A stretch of 64,000 nucleotides of DNA from Ruminococcus sp. (lineage in GTDB: Bacteria > Bacillota > Clostridia > Oscillospirales > Ruminococcaceae): contig JAJPYB010000004.1 in the NCBI GenBank assembly GCA_021205185.1, positions 1 through 64,000 on the forward strand, in the 5' to 3' direction. Below the pieces are notes generated by a model. The model saw only the letters and a list, made by a program, of their open reading frames with translations, was not told the DNA's origin and did not search any database. Numbering within the stretch: position 1 is the stretch's first letter; every line of letters begins with the position of its first letter. Both the position numbers and the translations under genes were made by a program. This document shows positions 940 through 12,039 of this stretch, one piece after another.

Positions 940-962
940 AAGAATTGCTAGACACAGGCACA
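925..962 (+). other. Frameshift or slippage point at A6 run
   Basis: Reading NELKK-stop in frame 1 switches to IKELLDTGTI in the -1 frame at the AAAAAA of 931-936. One additional A, or a -1 slip, rebuilds a canonical SHOCT motif across the junction. The sequence shows the motif continuity directly. Whether it is mutation, sequencing error, or programmed slippage is open. Confidence 0.6.
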
Positions 963-1952
963 ATAACGCAGGAAGAATTTGACGCTAAGAAAAAGCAAAT
1001 TCTTGCTTGTGATACAGAAATCAATGAAACTTCTGCTCAACCCCTACCTGTTAGTGATATGCCGATCAACGAGAATTTTTCAGAAGAAAATCAAAGCAGC
1101 ATAAGTAATGATTATCCAGAGCAGCCGAACAATTTAGAAAACAAGAATGCTTCTGATGTCTGCACAAATTGTGGAACAGTGTTTGAAGAAGGACACGCTT
1201 TTTGCCCGAAGTGCGGAACTCCTAAAACCGTTGTAAAAAATAGTTTTTGTCCAAAGTGCGGTGCTGAATTGCAAGCAGGTCAAGAGTTTTGTTCTACGTG
1301 CGGTCATAAAGTTAATTTTGAAACCGGTATTGTTAAGAAAAAGAGCAAGAAGAAAATTGTAATTCCGATTATAATAATCGCTGTTATAATAATTGCTGTT
1401 GTTGCAGCTGTATTTGTTGCACCTATGATTTTTGTTTCGGTTGAGGATATGTGCGCAGAAGGAAATTATACTGAAGCTTACGAAAAAGCGACAGATACAG
1501 AAAAAGATTCTGTTCTTGCTGAAAATGCCATAGCTGTAATGACTGAAAAGATAAGAACTGCTCTTGCCGATTTCGACTCTCCTCCTTCTGATATACAAGT
1601 GATAAGTGCTTATTACGCGCCATTGGTATCTGATGGCGAATTATCACAGTATTGTATTCTTGGTGTCAATATAACTACTGATGATGGTGTTTCTGGTAAT
1701 TGCTACATACTTGGGGATATATATGATGGTGAAGCGTTATCTCTTGGAATAGCTTACTCAACCACAGAAAATGCAGATACCCTGGCTCTTATAGCACAAT
1801 TAATTATTTCAGAATATTGTATTCAACTTAACGATTCGCAATTGGAAAATATAAATAATCGTTTGGATGAAAATACACTAAGCTCTATCGAATTAATTAA
1901 TGAAAACAATATTGATACCAGTCGTTTCAAAGAAAGTGACAGCGACGATTAA
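945..1952 (+). CDS. SHOCT / double zinc-ribbon membrane protein; probable 3' part of a frameshifted gene
   Basis: The frame opens inside a SHOCT motif (LLDTGTITQEEFDAKKKQIL). It continues through a low-complexity stretch into two zinc ribbons, CxxC-x11-CPKC at about residues 73-90 and CPKC-x11-CSTC at about 102-119. A membrane segment follows at about 136-164, then an outside domain of about 170 residues. The only possible starts are weak: the TTG at 945 has no ribosome binding site. A -1 shift in the preceding A6 run joins it to the upstream gene and completes the usual SHOCT start (ELKKIKELLD). Zinc-ribbon plus single-pass architecture is common in Firmicute sensor or scaffold proteins, but the role here is unknown. 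It could be a pseudogene, a sequencing error, or a product of slippage. Confidence 0.55.
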   Translation: MLDTGTITQEEFDAKKKQILACDTEINETSAQPLPVSDMPINENFSEENQSSISNDYPEQPNNLENKNASDVCTNCGTVFEEGHAFCPKCGTPKTVVKNSFCPKCGAELQAGQEFCSTCGHKVNFETGIVKKKSKKKIVIPIIIIAVIIIAVVAAVFVAPMIFVSVEDMCAEGNYTEAYEKATDTEKDSVLAENAIAVMTEKIRTALADFDSPPSDIQVISAYYAPLVSDGELSQYCILGVNITTDDGVSGNCYILGDIYDGEALSLGIAYSTTENADTLALIAQLIISEYCIQLNDSQLENINNRLDENTLSSIELINENNIDTSRFKESDSDD

Positions 1953-1963
1953 TAGTAAGTAAC

Positions 1964-1999
1964 CAGCAGCAGGCACCACGCCTGCTGCTGTTTGTTTGT
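1964..1999 (+). terminator. Rho-independent terminator
   Basis: A perfect 11-bp GC-rich stem (964-974 paired with 980-990 of the second kilobase, loop ACCAC) is followed by TTTGTTTG. It ends the transcript of the SHOCT/zinc-ribbon gene. Confidence 0.85.
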
Positions 2000-2040: not shown

Positions 2041-2069
2041 TTTACAAATTTCTCAACTTATGATATTAT
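2041..2069 (+). promoter_or_regulatory. Sigma-A promoter of the cobalamin operon
   Basis: TTTACA and TATTAT are separated by 17 bases. The expected start of transcription near 2076 lies about 20 bases before the first riboswitch element, as expected for a leader RNA. Confidence 0.65.
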
Positions 2070-2096
2070 GATATTGTTGTAAAAGTACATATTTTG

Positions 2097-2275
2097 GGTG
2101 TGCGGTGAATTTGCCTGGGATTTTCGGGTAAATTTTAAAAGGGAAACAGGTGAAAGACCTGTACAGCAGCCACTACTGTAAGTGAGGACGAAAAAACGCA
2201 TAGCTACCATTGCGGAAATCGTGAGAAGGGCGTTTAAGTAGATTGATACACAAGTCAGGAAACCTGCCGTATACC
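2097..2275 (+). ncRNA. Cobalamin (B12) riboswitch
   Basis: The leader carries GGGAAACAGGTGAAAGACCTG at about 2141-2161 and then CAGCAGCCACTACTGTAAGT at about 2164-2183. These match the conserved GGGAA..GGTGAAA and GCC-CACTGT core of cobalamin riboswitches. The 3' B12-box match AGTCAGGAAACCTGCCGT lies at about 2253-2270. It sits between a promoter and genes for a B12-like capture and import system. A short hairpin (AAGCC..GGGCTT near 2343-2362) between aptamer and first gene has no clean T-run. Control may therefore act on ribosome access rather than on termination; that part is inference. Confidence 0.9.
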
Positions 2276-2448
2276 TCGACAAGCTTTTTGTCGGTTCAAA
2301 ACCTGTTTGGGCAAATGGAGCAAGGATTGAACGCTAAAAATCAAGCCGTCTTTGGAGGGCTTATTTGCGTTACCTTCGTTACCTTTTTGATTTACTTGAC
2401 AGGGGAGAGTATGACTTTGCAAAGTAAATTTTGAAAGGGAAGAAGAAC

Positions 2449-3687
2449 ATGAACAAAAACCAAACAATCAAGAAACTGACAGCCTGCATTTGTGCGGCGG
2501 CAGTAGCAGCACTTTCCTGCGTAGCAGTGTCGTTTGCTGCGGAAAAAGAGGACGTACTGGAGGAGCTTTCAGATACCTCTCTTTACCTTTTGGAGCAAAA
2601 CTCATCGGCTGATTACACAAACGATTATGTCTTAGGAGCAGTTGTATCAGGAGCTGTAGACGAAAGCTTTTGCGAAAGCTATAAGGAGAGCGTAGAAGCA
2701 GCTCTCTCAGAGAATGACGGAAAGCTTATGTACACCGATTACTATTCAGGCGAGCAGACGGAATCGCTGATGTACGAAGCAACTGCTGCGATAGTTCTTA
2801 ATAAAATGGGATATGATACAACAGATATAGGCGGATATAATTTTGCTGATATTCTTGCAAGCTACGATCTTTCACTTGTCAGCAATCCGTATTACCTGTG
2901 CGAAGCTTTAAAGGCGGCAAGAGCAATAAACGCAGGCGATGAGCTTGAGCAGAAGCTTCTCGAAGCGTTAATGGCGTACTACACGGTTGACGAAAGCGAT
3001 TCCTCTTTGGGCGGAATGGATTATTGGGGAATTTCGACCGACAACAACGGCGTGTTTATTGATGCTGTAGCGCCGTATATGAGTGAAAATGAAGAGGTTA
3101 AGGAAGCGGTAGAAAAGTCGCTTAACTTTATCCTTTCAATGAAGCGCGACGACGGCTACGATTCGTCAGTTGCTTATGCGAGCGAGTATGGAAATCCTGA
3201 TTCCACGGCTCTTGCTCTAAGAGCCTTTATAGCTTGCGGAGACGACGAAAACGCAGCGGAGGCTTACTCGCTTCTTTTAGGCTTTAAGTCCTCACAAACT
3301 ACCGGCGCATACCTTTATTACGGAAGCGACAATGTGTATGCTACTAAAGACGCGCAGTCTGCGCTTTTAGCTTACTATGAGTACCTTGCAAGCTCAAGCA
3401 GCGAAGAGGAAACAACCGAGTCAACCGAAACAACTACCGACGAAACAACAGAAGCTGACGAAACGACAACAGAAGCTACGACAGCCGAATCAGATGATGA
3501 AAGCGAAAGTACAACTGCTGAGGATACTGAAGCAGAGGAAACAACTACGACCACCGCTTCAACAACAGAAAGCTCGACAGCGTCAACCTCAACCGATTCA
3601 AATCCAAACACAGGAGCAACAGGCATTACAGCTACAGTTACAATGCTCGCAATCGCTGGAGCGATAGCATTAAAGAAAAGAAGATAA
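2449..3687 (+). CDS. Surface alpha/alpha-toroid (prenyltransferase/terpene-cyclase-like repeat) protein with C-terminal sorting-type signal
   Basis: The product has 412 residues from the ATG at 2449, preceded by a purine-rich AAGGGAAG site; an in-frame TTG lies 18 bases upstream. A signal peptide (about 1-31, ending SFAA) leads into about 280 residues of paired helices, with features such as DGYDSSVAYASEYGNPDSTALALRAF split over repeats typical of the squalene-cyclase/prenyltransferase toroid. A Thr/Glu/Asp/Ser linker follows (about 318-383), then NPNTG, a hydrophobic stretch and KKRR, a sortase-like wall-anchoring signal. In animals the N-terminal half of intrinsic factor and transcobalamin is an alpha6-alpha6 barrel of this fold. 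Its place directly behind a B12 riboswitch and beside a DUF4430 gene suggests corrinoid capture at the cell wall. This is inference: no binding residue can be assigned by eye. Confidence 0.7.
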   Translation: MNKNQTIKKLTACICAAAVAALSCVAVSFAAEKEDVLEELSDTSLYLLEQNSSADYTNDYVLGAVVSGAVDESFCESYKESVEAALSENDGKLMYTDYYSGEQTESLMYEATAAIVLNKMGYDTTDIGGYNFADILASYDLSLVSNPYYLCEALKAARAINAGDELEQKLLEALMAYYTVDESDSSLGGMDYWGISTDNNGVFIDAVAPYMSENEEVKEAVEKSLNFILSMKRDDGYDSSVAYASEYGNPDSTALALRAFIACGDDENAAEAYSLLLGFKSSQTTGAYLYYGSDNVYATKDAQSALLAYYEYLASSSSEEETTESTETTTDETTEADETTTEATTAESDDESESTTAEDTEAEETTTTTASTTESSTASTSTDSNPNTGATGITATVTMLAIAGAIALKKRR

Positions 3688-3732
3688 CTGATCGGGGAAC
3701 ATCGTATTAGTTTGATACAAGGGGAGTGTGCC

Positions 3733-4704
3733 ATGAAAAAATTACTTTCTTGTCTTTTGGCGTTGATGATAGCTCTTGCTCTTTGCGCCTGCTCGGTAGA
3801 ATCTGTCGAGGAGCATGACGCTAAGGAGGCTTCGTCTAGCGCAGAAGCTGCAGAGGACGGAGTTGAAGCTGTAAGAGATGATAGCTCAGACGAGGATTCG
3901 GACGAAAGCTCAGACAGCGACGAAAGCTCCGATAGTGATGAAGATACCAAGTCTGATAAAGAGGATTCAGACGACTCGGATTCAGACGATTCTCAGTCTA
4001 CAACAGAAGTTGATTCAAACGCTTCGGAAAAGACGACAACTACCACAAAGATATCTGCCGGTAATAACGGCACAACCACAACCACCACGACTAAGACCTC
4101 CTCATATAGTTATTATGTTGTTGGAAGCGAAACCTATTACGTTTCCAAAACCGTAACAGGCACCAGTAAAACTTCAACCAGCAAGGGTAAAACCACAAGC
4201 GGTACCACAAAGGCTACAACCACTTCAAAATCTTCGGCAAGTGGTACAAAGTCAGCTTCCTCAAGTAGCAGCACCACGAAATCGAAAATCAAGGTTTCAC
4301 AGCTGGCAATAGACGTTTCCGACCTGCTTTCAAATTCAAGCCTTTCAGACGAGGGAAGAGCGGCAATAGAGAGCAGTCCATACGCAGATTACGGTGTGCT
4401 TATTCCGAAATACTCGTCTGTCACAGTTGTAGAAGGCTCTACCGTTCTGGATGTTTTGGAGCTTGTTTTGAAAACTGAAAGAAACGGCTCAAGCGGCTAT
4501 GCCGCAAATTCAACCGCTACGTTAGGCGTTAAAAATTCAGCTTATGGAAAGTATGTATACTCCATTTGCGGACTTGAGGAAAAGGCCTGCGGCTCAACCA
4601 GCGGATGGATGTATAAGGTGAACGGAAAAACTCCGTCGGTGTCGGCTGATAAGTACGTCTTAAAGGCGGGCGACGAGATAGAATGGGTTTACGTTACAGG
4701 CTAA
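3733..4704 (+). CDS. DUF4430 lipoprotein, candidate corrinoid-binding partner
   Basis: The start is the ATG at 3733 behind GGGGAG; the longer reading from 3712 lacks a site. Residues 1-20 form a lipoprotein signal with lipobox LCAC (lipidated Cys20). About 160 residues of Ser/Asp/Glu- and then Thr/Ser/Lys-rich linker follow. The C-terminal 100 residues form a DUF4430 domain (SGWMYKVNGKTPSV, then YVLKAGDEIEWVYVTG at the end). DUF4430 is related to the C-terminal beta domain of transcobalamin and intrinsic factor. The protein would be tethered to the membrane with a spacer long enough to cross the wall. Together with the preceding toroid protein it could form a two-chain B12 receptor handing ligand to the ECF importer encoded downstream. 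Confidence 0.75.
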   Translation: MKKLLSCLLALMIALALCACSVESVEEHDAKEASSSAEAAEDGVEAVRDDSSDEDSDESSDSDESSDSDEDTKSDKEDSDDSDSDDSQSTTEVDSNASEKTTTTTKISAGNNGTTTTTTTKTSSYSYYVVGSETYYVSKTVTGTSKTSTSKGKTTSGTTKATTTSKSSASGTKSASSSSSTTKSKIKVSQLAIDVSDLLSNSSLSDEGRAAIESSPYADYGVLIPKYSSVTVVEGSTVLDVLELVLKTERNGSSGYAANSTATLGVKNSAYGKYVYSICGLEEKACGSTSGWMYKVNGKTPSVSADKYVLKAGDEIEWVYVTG

Positions 4705-4753
4705 CAAATCGGAGGGAACTAAAACGGTTCATTTTAAAAAATTAAACGAGGTT

Positions 4754-5521
4754 TTGGCGGCAATATACTTTACGGCTTGCTTTGTAGGAATTTGCTTGAT
4801 TTCAAGCGAGCCTGAAGCGTTGCTGCCCTGCTTCGTTATTTGTATAGTATACAGTATCTTTTTAAAGTGCTTTAAAACAGCACTTTTTTGTTTACCAACG
4901 GTGGTACTGTTGATTTTGATAAATCCGTTGTTTAATACAATAGGCGAAACGCCGCTGTTTTATGTAAACGATAACCCGTATACGCTTGAAGCGCTTACAA
5001 CGGGAATAGAAACAGGAATTATGATTTTAACGCTGATTCTTTGGTTTCAGATAGCGGTGCGGTTTATAAATACCGAAAGGCTGTTTTTTGATCTGTCAAA
5101 GGTTCTGCCGTCGATTTCTCTGATGCTTTCGATGATTTTCAAAAGCACGAGCGATTTCTTATCAAGGGCAAGAAAAACGTCTGCCTGTCAGAAGAGCTTT
5201 ATAAAGGGCGACAAAAAGCGTTTCAAGCGAGCGTCAGCTATATTCTTGGCGACCTCGCAAAACGCCTTTGAAAGCTCGGTCGTAAAGGGAATTTCGATGA
5301 CCGGCAGAGGCTTTGAAAGGCGGGGAAAGTCAAACGTATATAGGATAAGACTTCGCACGGACGATTTTGTGGTCTTTTTAGCGACGGCAATTATTTTAAC
5401 GCTATGCGTTTTTCTGAATGGGGTAGCGTTCGTAGCTTTGTTTTCAGTCGCACTTTTGATCCCTGCGATTTACCAGCTTGGAGAGGATGTAAAATGGCAC
5501 TTTTTAAAATCGAAAATTTAA
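4754..5521 (+). CDS. ecfT: ECF transporter transmembrane component (EcfT/CbiQ family)
   Basis: The protein is about 255-265 residues with several membrane helices and the charged EcfT region near residues 125-175 (ARKTSACQKSF, then RRGKSNVYR), which couples to the ATPases. The TTG at 4754 has only a badly spaced site. The frame is open further upstream and reads VHFKKLNEVLAA, which resembles the start of EcfT proteins. A good GGAGGG at 4711-4716 sits seven bases before an in-frame ACG at 4724, so translation probably begins there on a non-standard codon, or an ATG has been lost. It overlaps the ATPase gene by 28 bases. The operon and riboswitch point to cobalamin as substrate. Confidence 0.8.
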   Translation: MAAIYFTACFVGICLISSEPEALLPCFVICIVYSIFLKCFKTALFCLPTVVLLILINPLFNTIGETPLFYVNDNPYTLEALTTGIETGIMILTLILWFQIAVRFINTERLFFDLSKVLPSISLMLSMIFKSTSDFLSRARKTSACQKSFIKGDKKRFKRASAIFLATSQNAFESSVVKGISMTGRGFERRGKSNVYRIRLRTDDFVVFLATAIILTLCVFLNGVAFVALFSVALLIPAIYQLGEDVKWHFLKSKI

Positions 5522-7053
5522 GCTTTAAATACGCCGGAGAAGAAAGCCTAGCGCTTAAAAATATTTCCTTTGAAACTCAAAAGGGCGAGGCCATAGCTGT
5601 TATCGGAAGCTCAGGAAGCGGAAAAACAACCCTTTTGCGAAGCCTTAAAAAGAGTATTGCGCCAAAGGGCGAGCTTTCGGGTGAGGTTAAATTCTTCGGC
5701 GGCGATGAAATAAAAGATATAGGCTTTGTCTTTCAGAATCCTTATGACCAGTCTGTGTGCCAGACGGTATTCGAGGAGCTTGTATTTGCGCCTCAGAATC
5801 TGGGCTTGGCAGCAGACATTATTCGAGTAAGGGTAGCTGAGGTCTGCGCATTTTTTGGAATCGGAGATTTGGTTTCAAAAAAAATGTCCGAGCTTTCAGG
5901 CGGCGAGGTACAGACTGTAAATCTTGCGGCGGCTGCGGTTCTTTCGCCGAGCGTAATACTGCTCGACGAGCCGACAGCTCAGCTTGACCCGATAAGCTCG
6001 CAGAGATTTACTCAGTCGCTTAAAAAGCTAAAGGACGAAATGGCTACAAGCATTATAGTTTCTACCCATTCGATTGAGAATCTTTTGCCGTTTGTTGATA
6101 AAATTTTAGTGCTTGAGGACGGCCGCCTCAGCTTTTTTGGAGATGCTGACGAGGTTATGAATTTGCTGAAGGAAAGTAAAAATCCTTTGGCGCTTGTAGG
6201 CGGAGGTCTGCCGCTCATTTCAAAATTCCACGTTTTAAAAACCGTAAAGCAAGCGAGAGATTTCCTGTCAGTAAACGATATTTCCTTTACGCCAAAACCA
6301 AAGCTGCAATCTGACTTTGGTGAAACGATGATAAACGCCAAAGGAATCTATATGCGCTATGAAAAGTATTCAAAGGACGTTTTGTGCGACGTATCGTTGA
6401 AGGTAAACAAGGGCGAGGCTTTAGGCCTTTGTGGCGCTAACGGAAGCGGAAAAACAACGCTCCTAAGTGTTTTGTCAAAGGCGCTTTCACCCTACAGCGG
6501 AAAGGTAAAGCTTGGCGGCGACCCGCTTTACATTCCTCAGGACCCCAGAATGGCATTTGTAAAGGACTCAATATACGAGGATATAAAATTTTTGTGCGAG
6601 CTTTCTTCAATTCCTCTTTCAGAGATTGACAGAGTGAAAAATGAATACTCTTTCTTTAATGGTATAGACGAAATTCTGGACAAGCATCCTTATGATTTAA
6701 GCGGTGGCGAGCTTCAGAAGGCAGTTGTGCTGAAAGCGCTGGTAGCCGACAAGGATATTTTGCTTTTTGACGAGCCTGTCAAGGGCTTGGATCCGCAAGC
6801 TAAAGAAGAATTTAGAAAAATGATTCTGGAGATAAAGTCCGAAAAGGCTATTATTATTGCTTCGCACGATATTGAATTTTTAGCCGATGCCAGCGACGAT
6901 ATAGCAATGCTCTTTGGCGGAGAAATTGTTTCAAGAAAGCAAAGTGATGAGTTTGTTTGTGAAAACAGCTATTTTACAACCTCACTTGTCCGCGCGACAA
7001 ATGGCATCAAGGACGGACTTATAACAAGCCGACAGCTGTGGGGTGAAATATGA
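5494..7053 (+). CDS. Fused double ATPase of ECF transporter (EcfA-A')
   Basis: The 519-residue protein starts at the ATG at 5494 behind GAGAGG, inside the end of ecfT; a longer frame back to 5404 encodes no ABC sequence. It holds two complete nucleotide-binding domains. The first (about 1-235) has Walker A GSSGSGKTT (38-46), signature LSGGEVQ and Walker B VILLDEPTAQLDP. The second (about 265-505) has GANGSGKTT, LSGGELQK and ILLFDEPVKGLDP. Both have the signature and switch elements needed for activity. Most ECF systems encode EcfA and EcfA' as separate genes, but fused forms are known. It energises import through EcfT and the S component. Its stop codon overlaps the next start (ATGA). Confidence 0.92.
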   Translation: MALFKIENLSFKYAGEESLALKNISFETQKGEAIAVIGSSGSGKTTLLRSLKKSIAPKGELSGEVKFFGGDEIKDIGFVFQNPYDQSVCQTVFEELVFAPQNLGLAADIIRVRVAEVCAFFGIGDLVSKKMSELSGGEVQTVNLAAAAVLSPSVILLDEPTAQLDPISSQRFTQSLKKLKDEMATSIIVSTHSIENLLPFVDKILVLEDGRLSFFGDADEVMNLLKESKNPLALVGGGLPLISKFHVLKTVKQARDFLSVNDISFTPKPKLQSDFGETMINAKGIYMRYEKYSKDVLCDVSLKVNKGEALGLCGANGSGKTTLLSVLSKALSPYSGKVKLGGDPLYIPQDPRMAFVKDSIYEDIKFLCELSSIPLSEIDRVKNEYSFFNGIDEILDKHPYDLSGGELQKAVVLKALVADKDILLFDEPVKGLDPQAKEEFRKMILEIKSEKAIIIASHDIEFLADASDDIAMLFGGEIVSRKQSDEFVCENSYFTTSLVRATNGIKDGLITSRQLWGEI

Positions 7054-7643
7054 ACGGATTTTTGATAGCGTTACTTTGCGCTATAATAATAGTAGCGGCG
7101 TATTTTCTCTGCTTTGAGCTTAAAAAACCTACCGCCGCAAGGCTGATGCCGATAGTCGTTCTTGTTGCGCTCGGAAGCGTCGGACGAGTGATATTTGCGT
7201 TCATTCCCCAATTTCAGCCGACAACTGCAATAGTTATAATAGCAGGCGCTGCGCTCGGCTCGACGGACGGCTTTATGACGGGCGCTCTTTGCGCTTTGGT
7301 TTCAAATATCATTTTAGGACATGGCGCATGGACGCCGTTTCAGATGATAGCATGGGGAACGGTCGGCGCATTAGCGGGAGTAATTTCAAAATTCAAGCTT
7401 GGAGAAACGCTTGTCGGTATGACGATATATTCCGCTCTTGCCGCATTTTTGTATTCTATAATAATGGACACTTATACCGTTTCAAGTCTTTGGCAGATTA
7501 TGACGCCGAGCTACGCTTTAACTATTTATTCGGCAGGTCTTTTCTTTAACATCCTTCAAATGATAGGCAATATAGTTTTTATGCTGATTCTTTACGTTCC
7601 GTTTAATCATATGCTGAAAAGAGTGCGGCTTAAGTACCTCTAG
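7050..7643 (+). CDS. ECF transporter substrate-binding S component, probably for cobalamin
   Basis: This is a 197-residue membrane protein with about six hydrophobic helices and short loops, including GAALGSTDGFMTGALCALVS and GAWTPFQMIAWG, which are typical of ECF S components. The start overlaps the ATPase stop (ATGA), so the two are translationally coupled. The gene ends the riboswitch operon. The specificity is read only from context: a B12 riboswitch and two B12-receptor-like surface proteins. It could be a CbrT-type or other corrinoid S component; related precursors such as dimethylbenzimidazole or cobinamide are possible alternatives. Confidence 0.8.
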   Translation: MNGFLIALLCAIIIVAAYFLCFELKKPTAARLMPIVVLVALGSVGRVIFAFIPQFQPTTAIVIIAGAALGSTDGFMTGALCALVSNIILGHGAWTPFQMIAWGTVGALAGVISKFKLGETLVGMTIYSALAAFLYSIIMDTYTVSSLWQIMTPSYALTIYSAGLFFNILQMIGNIVFMLILYVPFNHMLKRVRLKYL

Positions 7644-7836: not shown

Positions 7837-10800
7837 ATGAAAATCACTAAAAGATTGTTGTCTGGCGCTTTAAGCCTAGCGGTAGCGGCATCTGCTTGCT
7901 TGTCGAGCGGAATCGTTTTAGCTAACGCAACAGCACCGGAGGGCGATTACAACAGCGTAAGCGTTTTAACCGCTTCGGGTGTTGAGCTGGTATCAACTAC
8001 TAACACTCAAACCAGCTATGTGCAGACAAACCTGACATCAGACAGCGAGGATATGTTGGACAGCGACTATCTTTACATCGTTTACACGGTAAACGACACG
8101 GTAACTGATGACACAAAGACGTTTAATCTACAACCGTTTAACACAAGTTGGGGCGGTTGGGACGACAACTATGTAACAATCGGAGCATCGGATTATGATT
8201 CTTCAACCGGTCAGTATACATATTATGTTGCAACTCAAAAGATAATCCAGTCACTTTCAAGCGGAACATTTTATGGTATTAACATCAGCTTTGCGTCAAC
8301 TACTACTGAAATGACTCTCGTTGATTACGGATACTTAACCGAAGATGAGGTTGTTGATTTAGGAAACGAAGAGGATTATCAGCTTGAAGAGCAGGAGTTC
8401 ATCCTGAATGTAACAGGTACTGACCTTGTTGAAGCCGGATATGATGAGGAAGCGCTTCAAACGCTTATTTCTTCAAACAGCGGCACGGTAAAATTCTACG
8501 TTCACATCAGTGAAGCTAACGCTTATTCCTGGCTACAGGCCAGATCGGGCTCTGTTAATAACTTTAATGAGAACGCAGGCGTTACAGTTTATGATGACTG
8601 CGGCAGCGGAGCTTCAAACAAGTATCTGACAGGCTACGCTTGCACAAAGCAGACAAGCAGCAACTATCCGATTCAGATGAATTCTGACGGCGATCCAATA
8701 GGCTCAGCCGGAACGGGTAACTATGTTTTCCCTAACAACGCTATTACTACTTCAAAGATTACAGCTGTCAAGAACTACAGCCTTACTATTGCTATCAAGA
8801 CAACAGGCACAGAGGCTGAGGCTTTAGGCTTTGTATTCTCTGACGGAACTGCATTTACAGTTAATGCCGACGGAAGTTTAACACTTGGCTTTACAGTACC
8901 AACCTGCGAATCGACCACTTTTGAAAGCTCAGATTCTGACGAAGACGGCGAGGTTTGGGAGCAGTCGGTTGAAAAGAGAAGATCAAACCTTAAGCTTACA
9001 CTTGACTATATCGCAACAATGGATTCTTCCAAGTATACAGAGGATTCATGGGCAGCATTGCAGGACGCACTCGTTGTAGCGCAGGCGGAGTATGATAATT
9101 CTTCAGCTACAGCAGCAAGCTTGAAGAGCGCAAGAGATACGCTTGAAAATGTAAAGGCCAACCTTATATTTGCAACGGAAGGCGACGACGGCTCGAACGC
9201 TATGCCGTTCAGAGAGCTTACAGGCGCTGAAACGGTTGCTGAAATGGGAATGGGTATAAATCTTGGAAACACAATGGACGGACATTCAAGCTTTACCCCG
9301 GCAGAAACTGCATGGCAGTCAACCGTTACAACCAAGGAATACATTACAGCACTTCACGATGCAGGCTACAATACATTGAGAGTACCTGTAACGTGGGGAA
9401 ATATGATTGATGACGATGACGACTATTCAATCAACGAAAACTGGTTGAATAGAGTTCAGGAAATCGTTGACTATGCTATCGAGCAGGATATGTATGTTAT
9501 TATCAATGTTCATCATGACGGCGCAGAGCAGACAGGCTGGCTGAGAGTAGCAGCTGACGACATCGACGCAGTTATGGAGAAGTTTGAAGGCGTTTGGAGA
9601 ACAATCGCTACAAGATTCAAGGATTACGACGAGCATCTGATTTTCGAGTCAATGAACGAGGTAACCTGCGGTAAGACAGAAAGCACAAAGAACGCTTCTG
9701 AAGCAGTAAATTACGACACACCTATTATGGTAAACTTAAACCAGCTCTTTGTAAACACAGTTCGTTCAACTGGTTCAAACAACACAAAGAGATGGCTCAC
9801 AGCAGTAGCTCATTACGCAAACAACGGTTCAAGCAGCTTGTTTACAATGCCTAACGATACATATAATACTGACAACAGGCTGATGTTTGCGGCTCACATC
9901 TATTCTGACGTAGACGGAGTTCTGAGCAGATTAAAGACTATGTACAATAAGTTCAGCAAGCTTGGTATTCCAATGTATCTCGGTGAGTACGGAAGAACTC
10001 TTTCAACTGACGCAACATCAGCTTCAGGTTATAACGATCCGTATAGAGCATACTACAACGAGGTTACAAACCGAGCGTGTCAGGTTTATGGAATTTGTCC
10101 AATTGTATGGGATCAAGGCTTCGGTGATGAGGGCGAGCTTCAAACGGGACTTTATTCCTACTGGAACCGTGCGGAGCTAAGACCGATATTCAAGTCGATT
10201 ACCGATGCGAGTGCAAGAGGCACGTTGCTGGAACCGAGCGACTTAAACCTTTCTGGCGATTTTAGCGATATTACTTATGACACAGTATACGGCGTTGAAG
10301 TAACTGAAATGACAAGCATTACGCCGTCAGCAACGGAGGTTGAGCTTACAATCGGCGACGAAACAACGCTAACCGCAAGCTATGCGCCGTCTGATTCAAA
10401 TGACGTTATCGTATGGACAACAGACAACGAGGACGTTGTAACGGTATACAACGGACTTATCCGTGCTAAGGGAATTGGTATCACAACAGTACACGCTAAA
10501 TCCTTAAGCGGTTCTGTTGACGTTGAAATCGAAGTAACAGTAAATCCGACTGAGTCGGACGAGACTGCTGTAATTACAACCGATATGGAAACTTATGAGG
10601 TTGTAAACTCACGAGGAATCAACATTGAAGCTTCTGCAAGCAACGGCGATTTACTAACCTACAGAACTACAAACTCTGAGGTAGCGACAGTAAACAGCCA
10701 GGGCAGAGTTTACGGAATCGCAAACGGCGAGGCTTACATTGTTATCACAGCTGAAAGCGGAGCTACAAAGACCGTTAAGGTTGTAGTTAAGGACGCTTTG

Positions 10801-12039
10801 GCAACAGATGAAATTGAACTTGCAATCAAGGTTTACTACAACGACGATACTCATCAATACTGGAGCGCTGAAACAGGCGACACTATCACAGTAACTGAGG
10901 ACGGAACCTATACGCTCACGTTTGACGTTGACGAGGATCTTTCAAGCGCTGCAATAGCTGCCGGAATTACAAGCATTTCTAACCTAACGGCTATTTACAT
11001 TCAGGATCAGACGGTAGCTCTTGGAAACGCTACAAAGTCGCCGCTTGACGCTTGTAACATTACCTACAACAGCGTAAAGGTTGACGGTGTTGAGCTTACG
11101 CTCAATAGCTTAGCAGGACCGAAATCTGCGCTCAAGTCAAGCGGAGTATTCGACACGAACGACCCGATTAACGCTTGGGACGGCTCAGCAGTAGAAGAAG
11201 TAAGCGCAAATTCAAGCCACGTTGCAAACTTTACAACCGTCAGCAATCCAAAGACTATCGAGATTACGTTTACGCTTTCCGATATGGAATTTACAAAGTC
11301 TGCTGACGCAAGAGAAAATCCGGCAACAAGACTGACTGCTTCTTCTGATACAGAGGTTTATGCAGACGTTGGAACTGAGGTCGAGCTAAAGGTAAGAATC
11401 GCTCCTAGAAATCCTCTTACAGACAGCGTAACTTCATTCGTATCAAGCGATGAGTCAATCGTTTTGACAGACCTTACACCAATGACTCCTGACGAGAACG
11501 GATATATCACCGCAACAGTTTTGGTTGTAGGCACCGGCGAAGCGACCGTTACGGCAATGACCGAAAACGGATATACGGTAGTGTTCACCATCAATCCTTC
11601 CGGCGGAGATGTAACAGGTACGATAAATGTTTCCGACGAGGACGCTACAACTGAAATGACGGTAACGGCAGTAGCTGAGGACGGCACCGAAACGAGCGTA
11701 ACCGCTATAAGCATGGGAGAGTATACTATCGAAGGACTTGCATCAGGCACATATACGCTTGTTGTAAGCGGCGGAAAGTATGTACCACGTGAGTACAGCA
11801 TAGAGGTTGATACCGAGGACATTACCCAGGACGTTAGCTTGAATCCTTATGGAGATGTAAACGGCGACGGAAAGGCAACAACCGCTGACGTTGGCCTTGC
11901 AAATTCACACGCTAAAGGAGTTAATCTTCTTGAGGACTACGAGTTTGACTGCGCAGACGTTAATATTGACGGAAGCGTAACGACGGCAGACGTTGGAAAG
12001 ATAAACTCACACGCTAAGGGAGTAGCATTACTCTGGTAA
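7837..12039 (+). CDS. Secreted multidomain GH5 endoglucanase-type glycanase with type I dockerin
   Basis: This 1400-residue enzyme has a signal peptide (about 1-31) and two beta-rich modules of unknown type (about 35-180 and 185-370). A helical FIVAR-like segment (about 385-465) precedes a GH5 catalytic domain (about 470-800). The catalytic acid/base is E608 in FESMNEV and the nucleophile E717 in YLGEYGRT. The GH5 subfamily Cel5-like start MGINLGNTMDG and the NVHHDG motif are present. After it come two Big_2 Ig-like repeats (about 817-985), a beta-rich module (about 990-1165), another Ig-like repeat, and a carboxypeptidase-regulatory-like domain (about 1258-1338). The C-terminus is a type I dockerin with two calcium loops, DVNGDGKATTADVG and DVNIDGSVTTADVG. 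The enzyme should act outside the cell, docked to a scaffoldin not encoded here. The substrate is probably cellulose or another beta-1,4-glucan or mannan. Confidence 0.92.
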   Translation: MKITKRLLSGALSLAVAASACLSSGIVLANATAPEGDYNSVSVLTASGVELVSTTNTQTSYVQTNLTSDSEDMLDSDYLYIVYTVNDTVTDDTKTFNLQPFNTSWGGWDDNYVTIGASDYDSSTGQYTYYVATQKIIQSLSSGTFYGINISFASTTTEMTLVDYGYLTEDEVVDLGNEEDYQLEEQEFILNVTGTDLVEAGYDEEALQTLISSNSGTVKFYVHISEANAYSWLQARSGSVNNFNENAGVTVYDDCGSGASNKYLTGYACTKQTSSNYPIQMNSDGDPIGSAGTGNYVFPNNAITTSKITAVKNYSLTIAIKTTGTEAEALGFVFSDGTAFTVNADGSLTLGFTVPTCESTTFESSDSDEDGEVWEQSVEKRRSNLKLTLDYIATMDSSKYTEDSWAALQDALVVAQAEYDNSSATAASLKSARDTLENVKANLIFATEGDDGSNAMPFRELTGAETVAEMGMGINLGNTMDGHSSFTPAETAWQSTVTTKEYITALHDAGYNTLRVPVTWGNMIDDDDDYSINENWLNRVQEIVDYAIEQDMYVIINVHHDGAEQTGWLRVAADDIDAVMEKFEGVWRTIATRFKDYDEHLIFESMNEVTCGKTESTKNASEAVNYDTPIMVNLNQLFVNTVRSTGSNNTKRWLTAVAHYANNGSSSLFTMPNDTYNTDNRLMFAAHIYSDVDGVLSRLKTMYNKFSKLGIPMYLGEYGRTLSTDATSASGYNDPYRAYYNEVTNRACQVYGICPIVWDQGFGDEGELQTGLYSYWNRAELRPIFKSITDASARGTLLEPSDLNLSGDFSDITYDTVYGVEVTEMTSITPSATEVELTIGDETTLTASYAPSDSNDVIVWTTDNEDVVTVYNGLIRAKGIGITTVHAKSLSGSVDVEIEVTVNPTESDETAVITTDMETYEVVNSRGINIEASASNGDLLTYRTTNSEVATVNSQGRVYGIANGEAYIVITAESGATKTVKVVVKDALATDEIELAIKVYYNDDTHQYWSAETGDTITVTEDGTYTLTFDVDEDLSSAAIAAGITSISNLTAIYIQDQTVALGNATKSPLDACNITYNSVKVDGVELTLNSLAGPKSALKSSGVFDTNDPINAWDGSAVEEVSANSSHVANFTTVSNPKTIEITFTLSDMEFTKSADARENPATRLTASSDTEVYADVGTEVELKVRIAPRNPLTDSVTSFVSSDESIVLTDLTPMTPDENGYITATVLVVGTGEATVTAMTENGYTVVFTINPSGGDVTGTINVSDEDATTEMTVTAVAEDGTETSVTAISMGEYTIEGLASGTYTLVVSGGKYVPREYSIEVDTEDITQDVSLNPYGDVNGDGKATTADVGLANSHAKGVNLLEDYEFDCADVNIDGSVTTADVGKINSHAKGVALLW

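What the first reader, a model, noticed from the sequence alone, without database searches (positions are those of the whole stretch)
2041..7643. Riboswitch-controlled two-chain B12 capture and import system
Seen: a cobalamin riboswitch, an alpha/alpha-toroid wall protein, a DUF4430 lipoprotein, then EcfT, a fused EcfA-A' and an S component, all in one tight operon. Known: animal intrinsic factor, transcobalamin and haptocorrin join an alpha6-alpha6 barrel to a DUF4430-related beta domain, with B12 held between them. Inferred: here the two halves are separate proteins, one attached to the wall and one to the membrane, that would close over a corrinoid and pass it to the ECF importer. That would be a Gram-positive counterpart of BtuG/BtuB-type capture, useful for competing for B12 in the gut.
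Basis: partly seen in the sequence, partly recalled or inferred. Interest (0 to 1): 0.8.

Follow-up and report, generated by a model that had tools for sequence, protein, structure and literature searches.

The report
Split intrinsic-factor-like B12 capture operon
A Ruminococcus-like bacterium carries, behind a vitamin B12 sensor in RNA, two surface proteins that look like the two halves of the animal B12 carrier intrinsic factor, next to a B12-type importer; such bacterial proteins were predicted to capture B12 in 2007, and what this adds is a form in two separate chains that can be tested directly.

Summary
At 2041-7643 lie a promoter-like site, a cobalamin riboswitch (RF00174, 93.7 bits, the only one in the genome), a wall-sorted alpha/alpha toroid (NPNTG signal), a DUF4430 lipoprotein, EcfT, fused EcfA-A' and an S component whose family profile matches the proven B12 S component CbrT (6FNP, E 3.6e-21). 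All five parts recur together in 81 of 140 related loci, often behind a cobalamin-type riboswitch (control 1 of 19). Some relatives carry toroid and DUF4430 in one chain; the model of one finds haptocorrin, transcobalamin and intrinsic factor as its 15 best PDB matches. In 393 class genomes the intrinsic-factor Pfam family rings at four places, all toroids of this kind directly behind cobalamin riboswitches, though only one beside ECF genes. In the genus the five genomes with DUF4430 are exactly the five with MetH. The best reading is a two-chain corrinoid clamp feeding a CbrT-like importer. Binding, closing and hand-off are untested; the window toroid alone looks generic. The core idea is not new: Burroughs et al. 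(2007) predicted B12 scavenging by toroid plus transcobalamin-like domains in Gram-positive operons, and that animals acquired their carriers from them.

The parts
1964..1990 (+). terminator-like hairpin that closes the upstream unit
   Evidence: 11 pairs, T-rich tail; consensus match only
2041..2069 (+). sigma-70-type promoter-like site, extended -10
   Evidence: 10 of 12 matches (shuffles mean 0.7 sites, so one site is no more than chance gives); consensus match only
2086..2285 (+). cobalamin riboswitch aptamer
   Evidence: RF00174, 93.7 bits, E 5.2e-22; only one in the genome
2449..3687 (+). wall-sorted alpha/alpha toroid protein (412 aa; signal peptide, toroid, acidic Thr/Ser-rich linker, sorting signal)
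2539..3399 (+). alpha/alpha toroid domain as modelled
3601..3687 (+). NPNTG sorting signal, hydrophobic stretch and KKRR tail
   Evidence: sequence; NF033846 23.3 bits, cut-off 23.5; three sortase matches in genome
3733..4704 (+). DUF4430 lipoprotein (323 aa; LCAC lipobox near residue 20, long linker)
   Evidence: lipobox read from sequence
4435..4695 (+). DUF4430 (transcobalamin-C-like beta-grasp) domain
   Evidence: PF14478 62.8 bits, 64.7 bits
4724..5521 (+). EcfT; first usual start codon in frame is TTG 4754, perhaps starting at ACG 4724
   Evidence: falls in one family with the annotated EcfT of L. curvatus
5494..7053 (+). fused EcfA-EcfA' ATPase (519 aa)
   Evidence: PF00005 157.9 bits, two stretches; TIGR04520 269.5 bits, below its cut-off of 315
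7050..7643 (+). ECF S component of the CbrT kind (197 aa)
   Evidence: PF07155 36.2 bits; family profile against PDB: 6FNP E 3.6e-21, next 3P5N RibU 8.7e-5

Best explanation
A corrinoid capture and import operon repressed by cobalamin. When cobalamin is scarce, the riboswitch lets the operon be made. The NPNTG-sorted toroid in the wall and the membrane-bound DUF4430 lipoprotein are the alpha and beta halves of an intrinsic-factor-like binding site on two separate chains; a corrinoid bound by one half recruits the other, and the lipoprotein brings it to the CbrT-like S component, which the dedicated EcfT/EcfA-A' module energises. The imported cofactor serves MetH, the only protein with a B12-binding domain (PF02310) found in the genome. 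Shown: genes, riboswitch, folds, family relations, recurrence. Inferred: corrinoid binding, ligand-driven closing, hand-off, order of binding, OFF control.
Against: No binding data. Window toroid alone: the profile of its family finds squalene-hopene cyclases first (2.8e-18) and no intrinsic factor or transcobalamin at E<=1; Foldseek puts transcobalamin only at rank 31; PF01122 does not match it. Of the four PF01122 places only L039 has ECF genes beside it; none was detected in the stretches L206, L207 and L208. In fusions the order is DUF4430 first in 10 of 43 and mixed in 6. 24 of 80 S-centred loci have DUF4430 but no detected toroid, and 17 of 80 have neither, many on cut contigs. Among S-centred loci with at least 6 kb upstream, 30 of 54 have no cobalamin-type riboswitch found; L127 itself, whose model carries the fold argument, is one of them, and none was found by R1 beside the L. 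curvatus operon. The fusion model matches with large rmsd, so the relative pose of the domains is not tested.
Confidence: 0.7

Rival explanations
1. The DUF4430 lipoprotein alone is the corrinoid receptor of the ECF importer; the wall toroid of the window has another job (spacer, glycan or protein binding) and does not take part in the site.
For: DUF4430 is the more constant partner: 63 of 80 S-centred loci have it on the same strand, 39 of 80 a toroid; 24 of 80 have DUF4430 without a detected toroid. The transcobalamin beta domain binds cobalamin alone (PMC5599065). The window toroid resembles generic toroids.
Against: Toroid and DUF4430 are fused in one chain on the operon strand in 25 of 60 DUF4430-centred and 15 of 80 S-centred loci; PF01122 itself rings in toroids of this kind. 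Missing toroids may lie on cut contigs or be too divergent.
Confidence: 0.14
2. Only the ECF module handles B12; toroid and DUF4430 bind an unrelated ligand such as a surface polysaccharide or a protein and share the operon for another reason.
For: Alpha/alpha toroids also make sugar epimerases, lyases and complement thioester domains, which are among the best matches of the window toroid.
Against: In the window the riboswitch stands directly before the toroid gene, and the four PF01122 toroids each have one directly upstream, three of them with no ECF gene detected in the stretch, so B12 control attaches to the toroid itself; the fusion model matches B12 carriers first; genus-level match with MetH.
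Confidence: 0.09
3. The system takes up corrinoid precursors or degraded corrinoids (cobinamide) rather than complete cobalamin.
For: ECF-CbrT transports cobinamide as well as cobalamin (PMC5997447, passages); Burroughs et al. left B12 or its precursors open.
Against: Adenosyltransferases were searched for and not found; other salvage genes were not searched for; nothing in the sequence separates the two ligands.
Confidence: 0.05

Closest known systems
Toroid plus transcobalamin-like SLBB (DUF4430) surface proteins of Gram-positive operons (Burroughs et al. 2007, PMC1796856; section 7 part 1 read, reviewer report 1, abstract, further passages)
   Same: Secreted or wall-anchored, toroid with beta-grasp domain, operon with CbiO-like ATPase and CbiQ-like membrane protein, predicted B12 scavenging, often a second SLBB protein.
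   Different: In the window the toroid and the DUF4430 domain are on separate chains, one with a wall and one with a membrane signal; the part read does not name a riboswitch, an S component or a toroid-only partner (its figures are not held).
Animal intrinsic factor, transcobalamin and haptocorrin
   Same: Alpha/alpha toroid plus transcobalamin-type beta-grasp domain; separated human transcobalamin halves reassemble on cobalamin (PMC5599065).
   Different: Single soluble chain, in transcobalamin disulfide-bonded, B12 released only by proteolysis (PMC11107200, passages); window halves are two chains with anchoring signals and PF01122 does not match the window toroid.
ECF-CbrT of Lactobacillus delbrueckii
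   Same: S component family, ECF energising module, cobalamin context.
   Different: L. delbrueckii cbrT lies in an nrdJ-cbrS-cbrT-pduO cluster (PMC5997447, passages); 'lipoprotein' and 'riboswitch' do not occur in that paper's text.
Label 'Additional lipoprotein component of putative cobalamin ECF transporter' (seen in a table of PMC9963975; that it stems from SEED is recalled)
   Same: A lipoprotein tied to a cobalamin ECF transporter is already a predicted annotation.
   Different: The passage does not say that this protein is the DUF4430 one; the same paper names another protein, LGG_02295, as DUF4430.
Bacteroides BtuG/BtuH surface capture
   Same: Surface protein that captures B12 ahead of an importer.
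   Different: Gram-negative outer-membrane proteins (recalled for BtuG); no relation by sequence was tested here. The BtuH paper notes that less is known of Firmicutes (PMC8941943, passages).

Membership tests
Intrinsic factor / transcobalamin / haptocorrin family | N-terminal alpha/alpha toroid | tested here: met
Intrinsic factor / transcobalamin / haptocorrin family | Sequence signature PF01122 on the toroid | tested here: not met
   No match of the window toroid; met by relatives: 55.1, 48.6 and 25.3 bits over the cut-off of 25 in the genome search, 23.8 below it; as whole proteins two of four pass
Intrinsic factor / transcobalamin / haptocorrin family | Transcobalamin-type beta-grasp (DUF4430) domain | tested here: met
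   PF14478 62.8 bits; transcobalamins carry DUF4430 at the C-terminus (PMC4350170, passage)
Intrinsic factor / transcobalamin / haptocorrin family | Both domains in one chain, toroid first | tested here: not met
   Two ORFs in the window; met in 27 of 43 fusion ORFs of relatives, L127 among them
[quoted passage not shown]
   Present in the L127 model (strands 451-454 and 461-465 after helix 436-446); the window DUF4430 was not modelled
Intrinsic factor / transcobalamin / haptocorrin family | Binds cobalamin between the two domains | not testable with these tools
   needs a binding assay or a structure
Predicted Gram-positive SLBB/toroid B12 scavenging operon (Burroughs 2007) | Secreted or surface-anchored SLBB protein | tested here: met
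   signal peptide and lipobox by reading, PF14478
Predicted Gram-positive SLBB/toroid B12 scavenging operon (Burroughs 2007) | CbiO-like ATPase and CbiQ-like membrane protein in the operon | tested here: met
   EcfA-A'; EcfT by family with annotated relative L004, no Pfam CbiQ match of its own
Predicted Gram-positive SLBB/toroid B12 scavenging operon (Burroughs 2007) | Host lacks key B12 biosynthesis genes | not tested
   only adenosyltransferases were searched for and not found
ECF-CbrT type cobalamin importer | S component related to CbrT | tested here: met
   6FNP E 3.6e-21 with the family profile
ECF-CbrT type cobalamin importer | ATP-driven cobalamin transport | not testable with these tools
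   needs a transport or growth assay
Cobalamin riboswitch RF00174 | Score above the gathering cut-off, full aptamer | tested here: met
   93.7 against 31.5 bits, model 1-189 of 189
Sortase substrate (NPXTG) | NCBIfam NF033846 above cut-off | tested here: inconclusive
   23.3 bits, cut-off 23.5; motif and tail present by reading; sortases in genome

The most novel reading that the evidence does not exclude
The window encodes a naturally split intrinsic factor: an alpha half fixed to the wall and a beta half fixed to the membrane that assemble only around a corrinoid and hand it, without proteolysis, to an ECF importer; the widespread one- and two-chain forms in Gram-positive bacteria are the stock from which the animal B12 carriers came.
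Probability: 0.42. Interest if true: 0.78.

Novelty: new member of a known kind. Interest (0 to 1): 0.55.

Why it matters
B12 uptake by Gram-positive gut bacteria is poorly known: the BtuH paper says less is known of cobamide acquisition in Firmicutes (passage), and the passages seen of a review name btuFCD homologues and the L. delbrueckii ECF transporter for them. A prediction of 2007 that toroid/beta-grasp proteins scavenge B12, and that animal carriers came from them, can be tested here on a small two-chain system with its own importer and riboswitch. If right, it explains how such bacteria compete for B12 and gives a reversible bacterial counterpart of intrinsic factor.

Tried and rejected
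Sequence searches of the two window proteins against PDB gave nothing useful. Pfam on the window toroid gave nothing. A profile of the toroid family finds terpene cyclases, not B12 carriers, so the claim that the toroid by itself shows an intrinsic-factor barrel was dropped; the link rests on the pair, the fusions and PF01122 in relatives. VIA-align did not list B12 carriers among the 50 rows for the window toroid, which shows nothing either way. Riboswitch counts with my own model R1 (only 15 base pairs, so mainly a sequence model) missed some cobalamin riboswitches: Rfam added L119 and L139 (RF00174), L141 and L151 (AdoCbl-II) and L144 (AdoCbl); one search added none. The expression platform was folded (z -2.17) without a clear ON/OFF pair, so transcriptional or translational control is left open. 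Paper searches: DUF4430 (6 papers), DUF4430 with cobalamin (2), transcobalamin with intrinsic factor, Firmicutes and riboswitch (2), CbrT with cobalamin and ECF (15), cobalamin ECF transporter or lipoprotein component (15 of 618 listed), corrinoid with Gram-positive, intrinsic factor and lipoprotein (2), transcobalamin with haptocorrin and structure terms (2), vitamin B12 with ECF, Firmicutes, corrinoid uptake and lipoprotein (15 of 16 listed), cobalamin riboswitch with cell wall, surface protein and ECF transporter (15 of 18 listed). In the titles and abstracts listed I saw no experimental study of the toroid/DUF4430 system; the key prior paper came from transcobalamin-like with bacteria (3). 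The 2009 ECF paper of Rodionov et al. is not held.

Selection and circularity: the 60 DUF4430-centred loci were chosen by me from the strongest rows listed (several contig-edge rows and further rows on the same contig skipped; one genome used twice) plus four genus loci; weaker DUF4430 matches, including those that the list did not show, were not followed. The 80 S-centred loci are the best 80 of 580 confirmed candidates, so they favour near relatives. The sets overlap in part (L059 and L099 share contig length and gene coordinates; L079 and L109 share contig length and gene lengths). The toroid, DUF4430 and ECF profiles were trained on the ORFs they then searched, so their E-values are not independent. 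Of the 13 riboswitches in R1, one is the window's and 12 come from the DUF4430-centred loci; without those 12 loci the count is 29 of 48. Same-strand counts take a riboswitch anywhere in the stretch; the stricter analysis (within 1.8 kb before the first tagged gene, gene start more than 700 bases from the edge, toroid or DUF4430 before EcfT) gives 27 of 42 and 21 of 42. L196 (100 bases) was left out of the control. Rfam was run on 7 of the 19 control stretches and found the same single one, L186.
Full report
Observation. A cobalamin riboswitch at 2086-2285 scores 93.7 bits and is the only RF00174 match in the 1.75 Mb genome. A promoter-like site at 2041-2069 precedes it and a terminator-like hairpin at 1964-1990 stands before that (consensus matches). 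Five genes follow on the same strand: a 412-aa protein with signal peptide and NPNTG sorting signal, a 323-aa DUF4430 lipoprotein (PF14478 62.8 bits; the only DUF4430 match in the genome), EcfT, fused EcfA-A', and a 197-aa S component. EcfT/EcfA and EcfA/S overlap. The genome has three sortase matches. The nearest named record is a Ruminococcus MAG (L099, S component 96% identical).

Importer. The S component matches general ECF families. A profile of 15 relatives finds 6FNP, the S component of ECF-CbrT, at E 3.6e-21; the riboflavin S component 3P5N follows at 8.7e-5. ECF-CbrT moves cobalamin and cobinamide in proteoliposomes (PMC5997447, passages). The window EcfT has no CbiQ match in Pfam but falls in one family with an annotated EcfT of Latilactobacillus curvatus, whose plasmid carries the same five-gene order with an LPXTG toroid protein in first place; no riboswitch was found by R1 beside that operon.

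Recurrence. I examined two sets: 60 loci around strong DUF4430 matches (from, in which 159 of 393 class genomes have DUF4430) and 80 loci around relatives of the S component (best 80 of 580). ORFs were tagged with profiles for toroid, DUF4430 and ECF parts. Toroid, DUF4430, EcfT, double EcfA and S stand on one strand in 42 of 60 and 39 of 80. EcfT with double EcfA was found in 47 of 60 and 72 of 80; DUF4430 on the anchor's strand in 60 of 60 (by selection) and 63 of 80; a toroid in 54 of 60 and 39 of 80. Toroid-only with DUF4430-only ORFs and no fusion on the operon strand, the window's form, occur in 29 of 60 and 24 of 80; fusions on that strand in 25 of 60 and 15 of 80. Counting both strands there are 43 fusion ORFs: toroid first in 27, DUF4430 first in 10, mixed in 6. 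Record titles name Clostridia, Coriobacteriales or Eggerthellaceae and Bacilli members.

Riboswitch. With a covariance model made from 13 riboswitches (the window's and 12 from these loci), a riboswitch (E<=1e-3) lies somewhere in the stretch on the operon strand in 40 of 60 DUF4430-centred loci, 11 of the 40 having given sequences to the model, and only on the other strand in 3. Among S-centred loci it is 25 of 80, none on the other strand. Of the 54 S-centred loci with at least 6 kb before EcfT (or before S where no EcfT was tagged), 19 have one by this model and 24 after Rfam on the other 35 added L119, L139, L141, L144 and L151. Directly before the first tagged gene (within 1.8 kb) it is 27 of 42 and 21 of 42. 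Control: 1 of 19 stretches of about 20 kb elsewhere in the same genomes, either strand, with R1; Rfam on 7 of these 19 found the same one. Fisher: 40/60 against 1/19 1.6e-6; 24/54 against 1/19 1.2e-3, or 19/54 against 1/19, R1 alone on both sides, 8.9e-3. More than half of the 54 remain without a riboswitch found; in some the first gene runs off the contig.

PF01122. Of 42 toroids two match the Pfam family of the animal carriers (best 4.4e-4). In 393 class genomes the family rings in 3 (four places: 55.1, 48.6, 25.3 and 23.8 bits, cut-off 25), and in 0 of 14 control genomes. All four places are hit by my toroid profile. L039 and L207 have DUF4430 in the same ORF, L208 in the next one, L206 none in its 20 kb; ECF genes were detected only beside L039. 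All four have RF00174 above its cut-off just upstream. As whole proteins two of the four pass the Pfam cut-off (51.4, 45.8; the others 23.2 and 21.2). This is the most direct sequence link between the bacterial system and intrinsic factor.

Physiology. The own genome has one match to the B12-binding domain PF02310, in a protein with methionine synthase domains, and no match to two adenosyltransferase families. In the genus, PF14478 is in 5 of 15 genomes and the MetH cap PF02607 in the same 5 of 15 (Fisher 3.3e-4); two of the ten without either are under 90% complete. In the five genomes the two lie on different contigs. Shared descent of the five is not excluded. In the class PF02607 is in 309 of 393 and DUF4430 in 159, so other importers must serve many.

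Mechanism. Human transcobalamin halves expressed apart co-elute only when cyanocobalamin is present, and the beta half binds it alone (PMC5599065, part 1 of section 3 read). The rat transcobalamin paper describes the alpha domain closing on the beta-domain complex (PMC11107200, passages). By analogy I infer that the DUF4430 lipoprotein and the wall toroid close on a corrinoid and that the lipoprotein delivers it to the S component. How a tight clamp opens again without proteolysis is unknown; two chains could make release easier (inference). Cobalamin riboswitches are described as OFF switches (PMC11477304, passage).

Prior knowledge. Burroughs, Balaji, Iyer and Aravind (2007, PMC1796856; section 7 part 1 read, further passages) described the transcobalamin-like SLBB domain in low-GC Gram-positives, secreted or wall-anchored, fused on either side to alpha/alpha toroids, in operons with CbiO/CbiQ-like genes and often a second SLBB protein; they proposed B12 scavenging and transfer to animals. 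That DUF4430 is this domain is my reading: a passage of PMC4350170 says that transcobalamins carry DUF4430 at the C-terminus. The part read names no riboswitch, S component or split form; figures and supplement were not seen. My paper searches showed no experiment on it (named in Tried and rejected).

Verdict. A real, widespread system; the window is a member in split form. New here as far as I could see: the two-chain layout with wall and membrane signals, the CbrT relation, the riboswitch counts, the PF01122 places, the whole-fold match of a one-chain relative, and the genus-level match with MetH. Binding and hand-off remain to be shown.

Noticed in passing
window 4711-4754: EcfT has no ATG/GTG/TTG near its Shine-Dalgarno-like GGAGGG; in frame the nearest candidate is ACG at 4724. 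The relative L099 has the same ACG, while L060 has GTG one codon earlier. Possible non-canonical start.
   Followed up: partly
window 7837-12039: Downstream 1400-aa GH5 cellulase with Big_2 domains and a dockerin-like end (Dockerin_1 20.1 bits, cut-off 22.9), suggesting a cellulosome-type degrader.
   Followed up: partly
window 945-1952: Zinc-ribbon protein with a hydrophobic stretch, upstream of the operon, function unknown.
   Followed up: no
L206 7761-10970: Toroid protein with PF01122 (48.6 bits in the genome search) and a cobalamin riboswitch directly upstream, but no DUF4430 or ECF gene detected within the 20 kb: a stand-alone unit in a genome that has the full operon elsewhere (L039).
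   Followed up: partly
L083, L089, L160: Extra ORF of about 316 aa tagged as S-like beside the DUF4430 genes, in addition to the usual S component.
   Followed up: no
L066 10385-13222: DUF4430 domains fused to a BamB-like beta-propeller (PF13360), second gene behind a cobalamin riboswitch.
   Followed up: no
L093, L167: Two cobalamin riboswitches in the same locus on the same strand.
   Followed up: no
L141, L144, L151: Relatives with other cobalamin riboswitch classes (AdoCbl-II or AdoCbl) instead of RF00174 on the operon strand.
   Followed up: partly
plasmid hits: The five-gene operon lies on a Latilactobacillus curvatus plasmid of 592 kb, and S-component relatives lie on Enterococcus and Lactobacillaceae plasmids, some annotated as cobalamin ECF transporter.
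   Followed up: partly
phage-collection hits: Five records labelled as phages (three from human faeces, two named Listeria phage) encode relatives of the S component; mislabelled bacterial DNA or real cargo, not examined.
   Followed up: no
PDB 3u7z: A solved Ruminococcus gnavus protein titled 'putative metal binding protein' (RUMGNA_00854) matches the fusion model over 114 alignment columns (E 1.1e-2), about the size of the DUF4430 domain; it may be worth re-testing with corrinoids.
   Followed up: no
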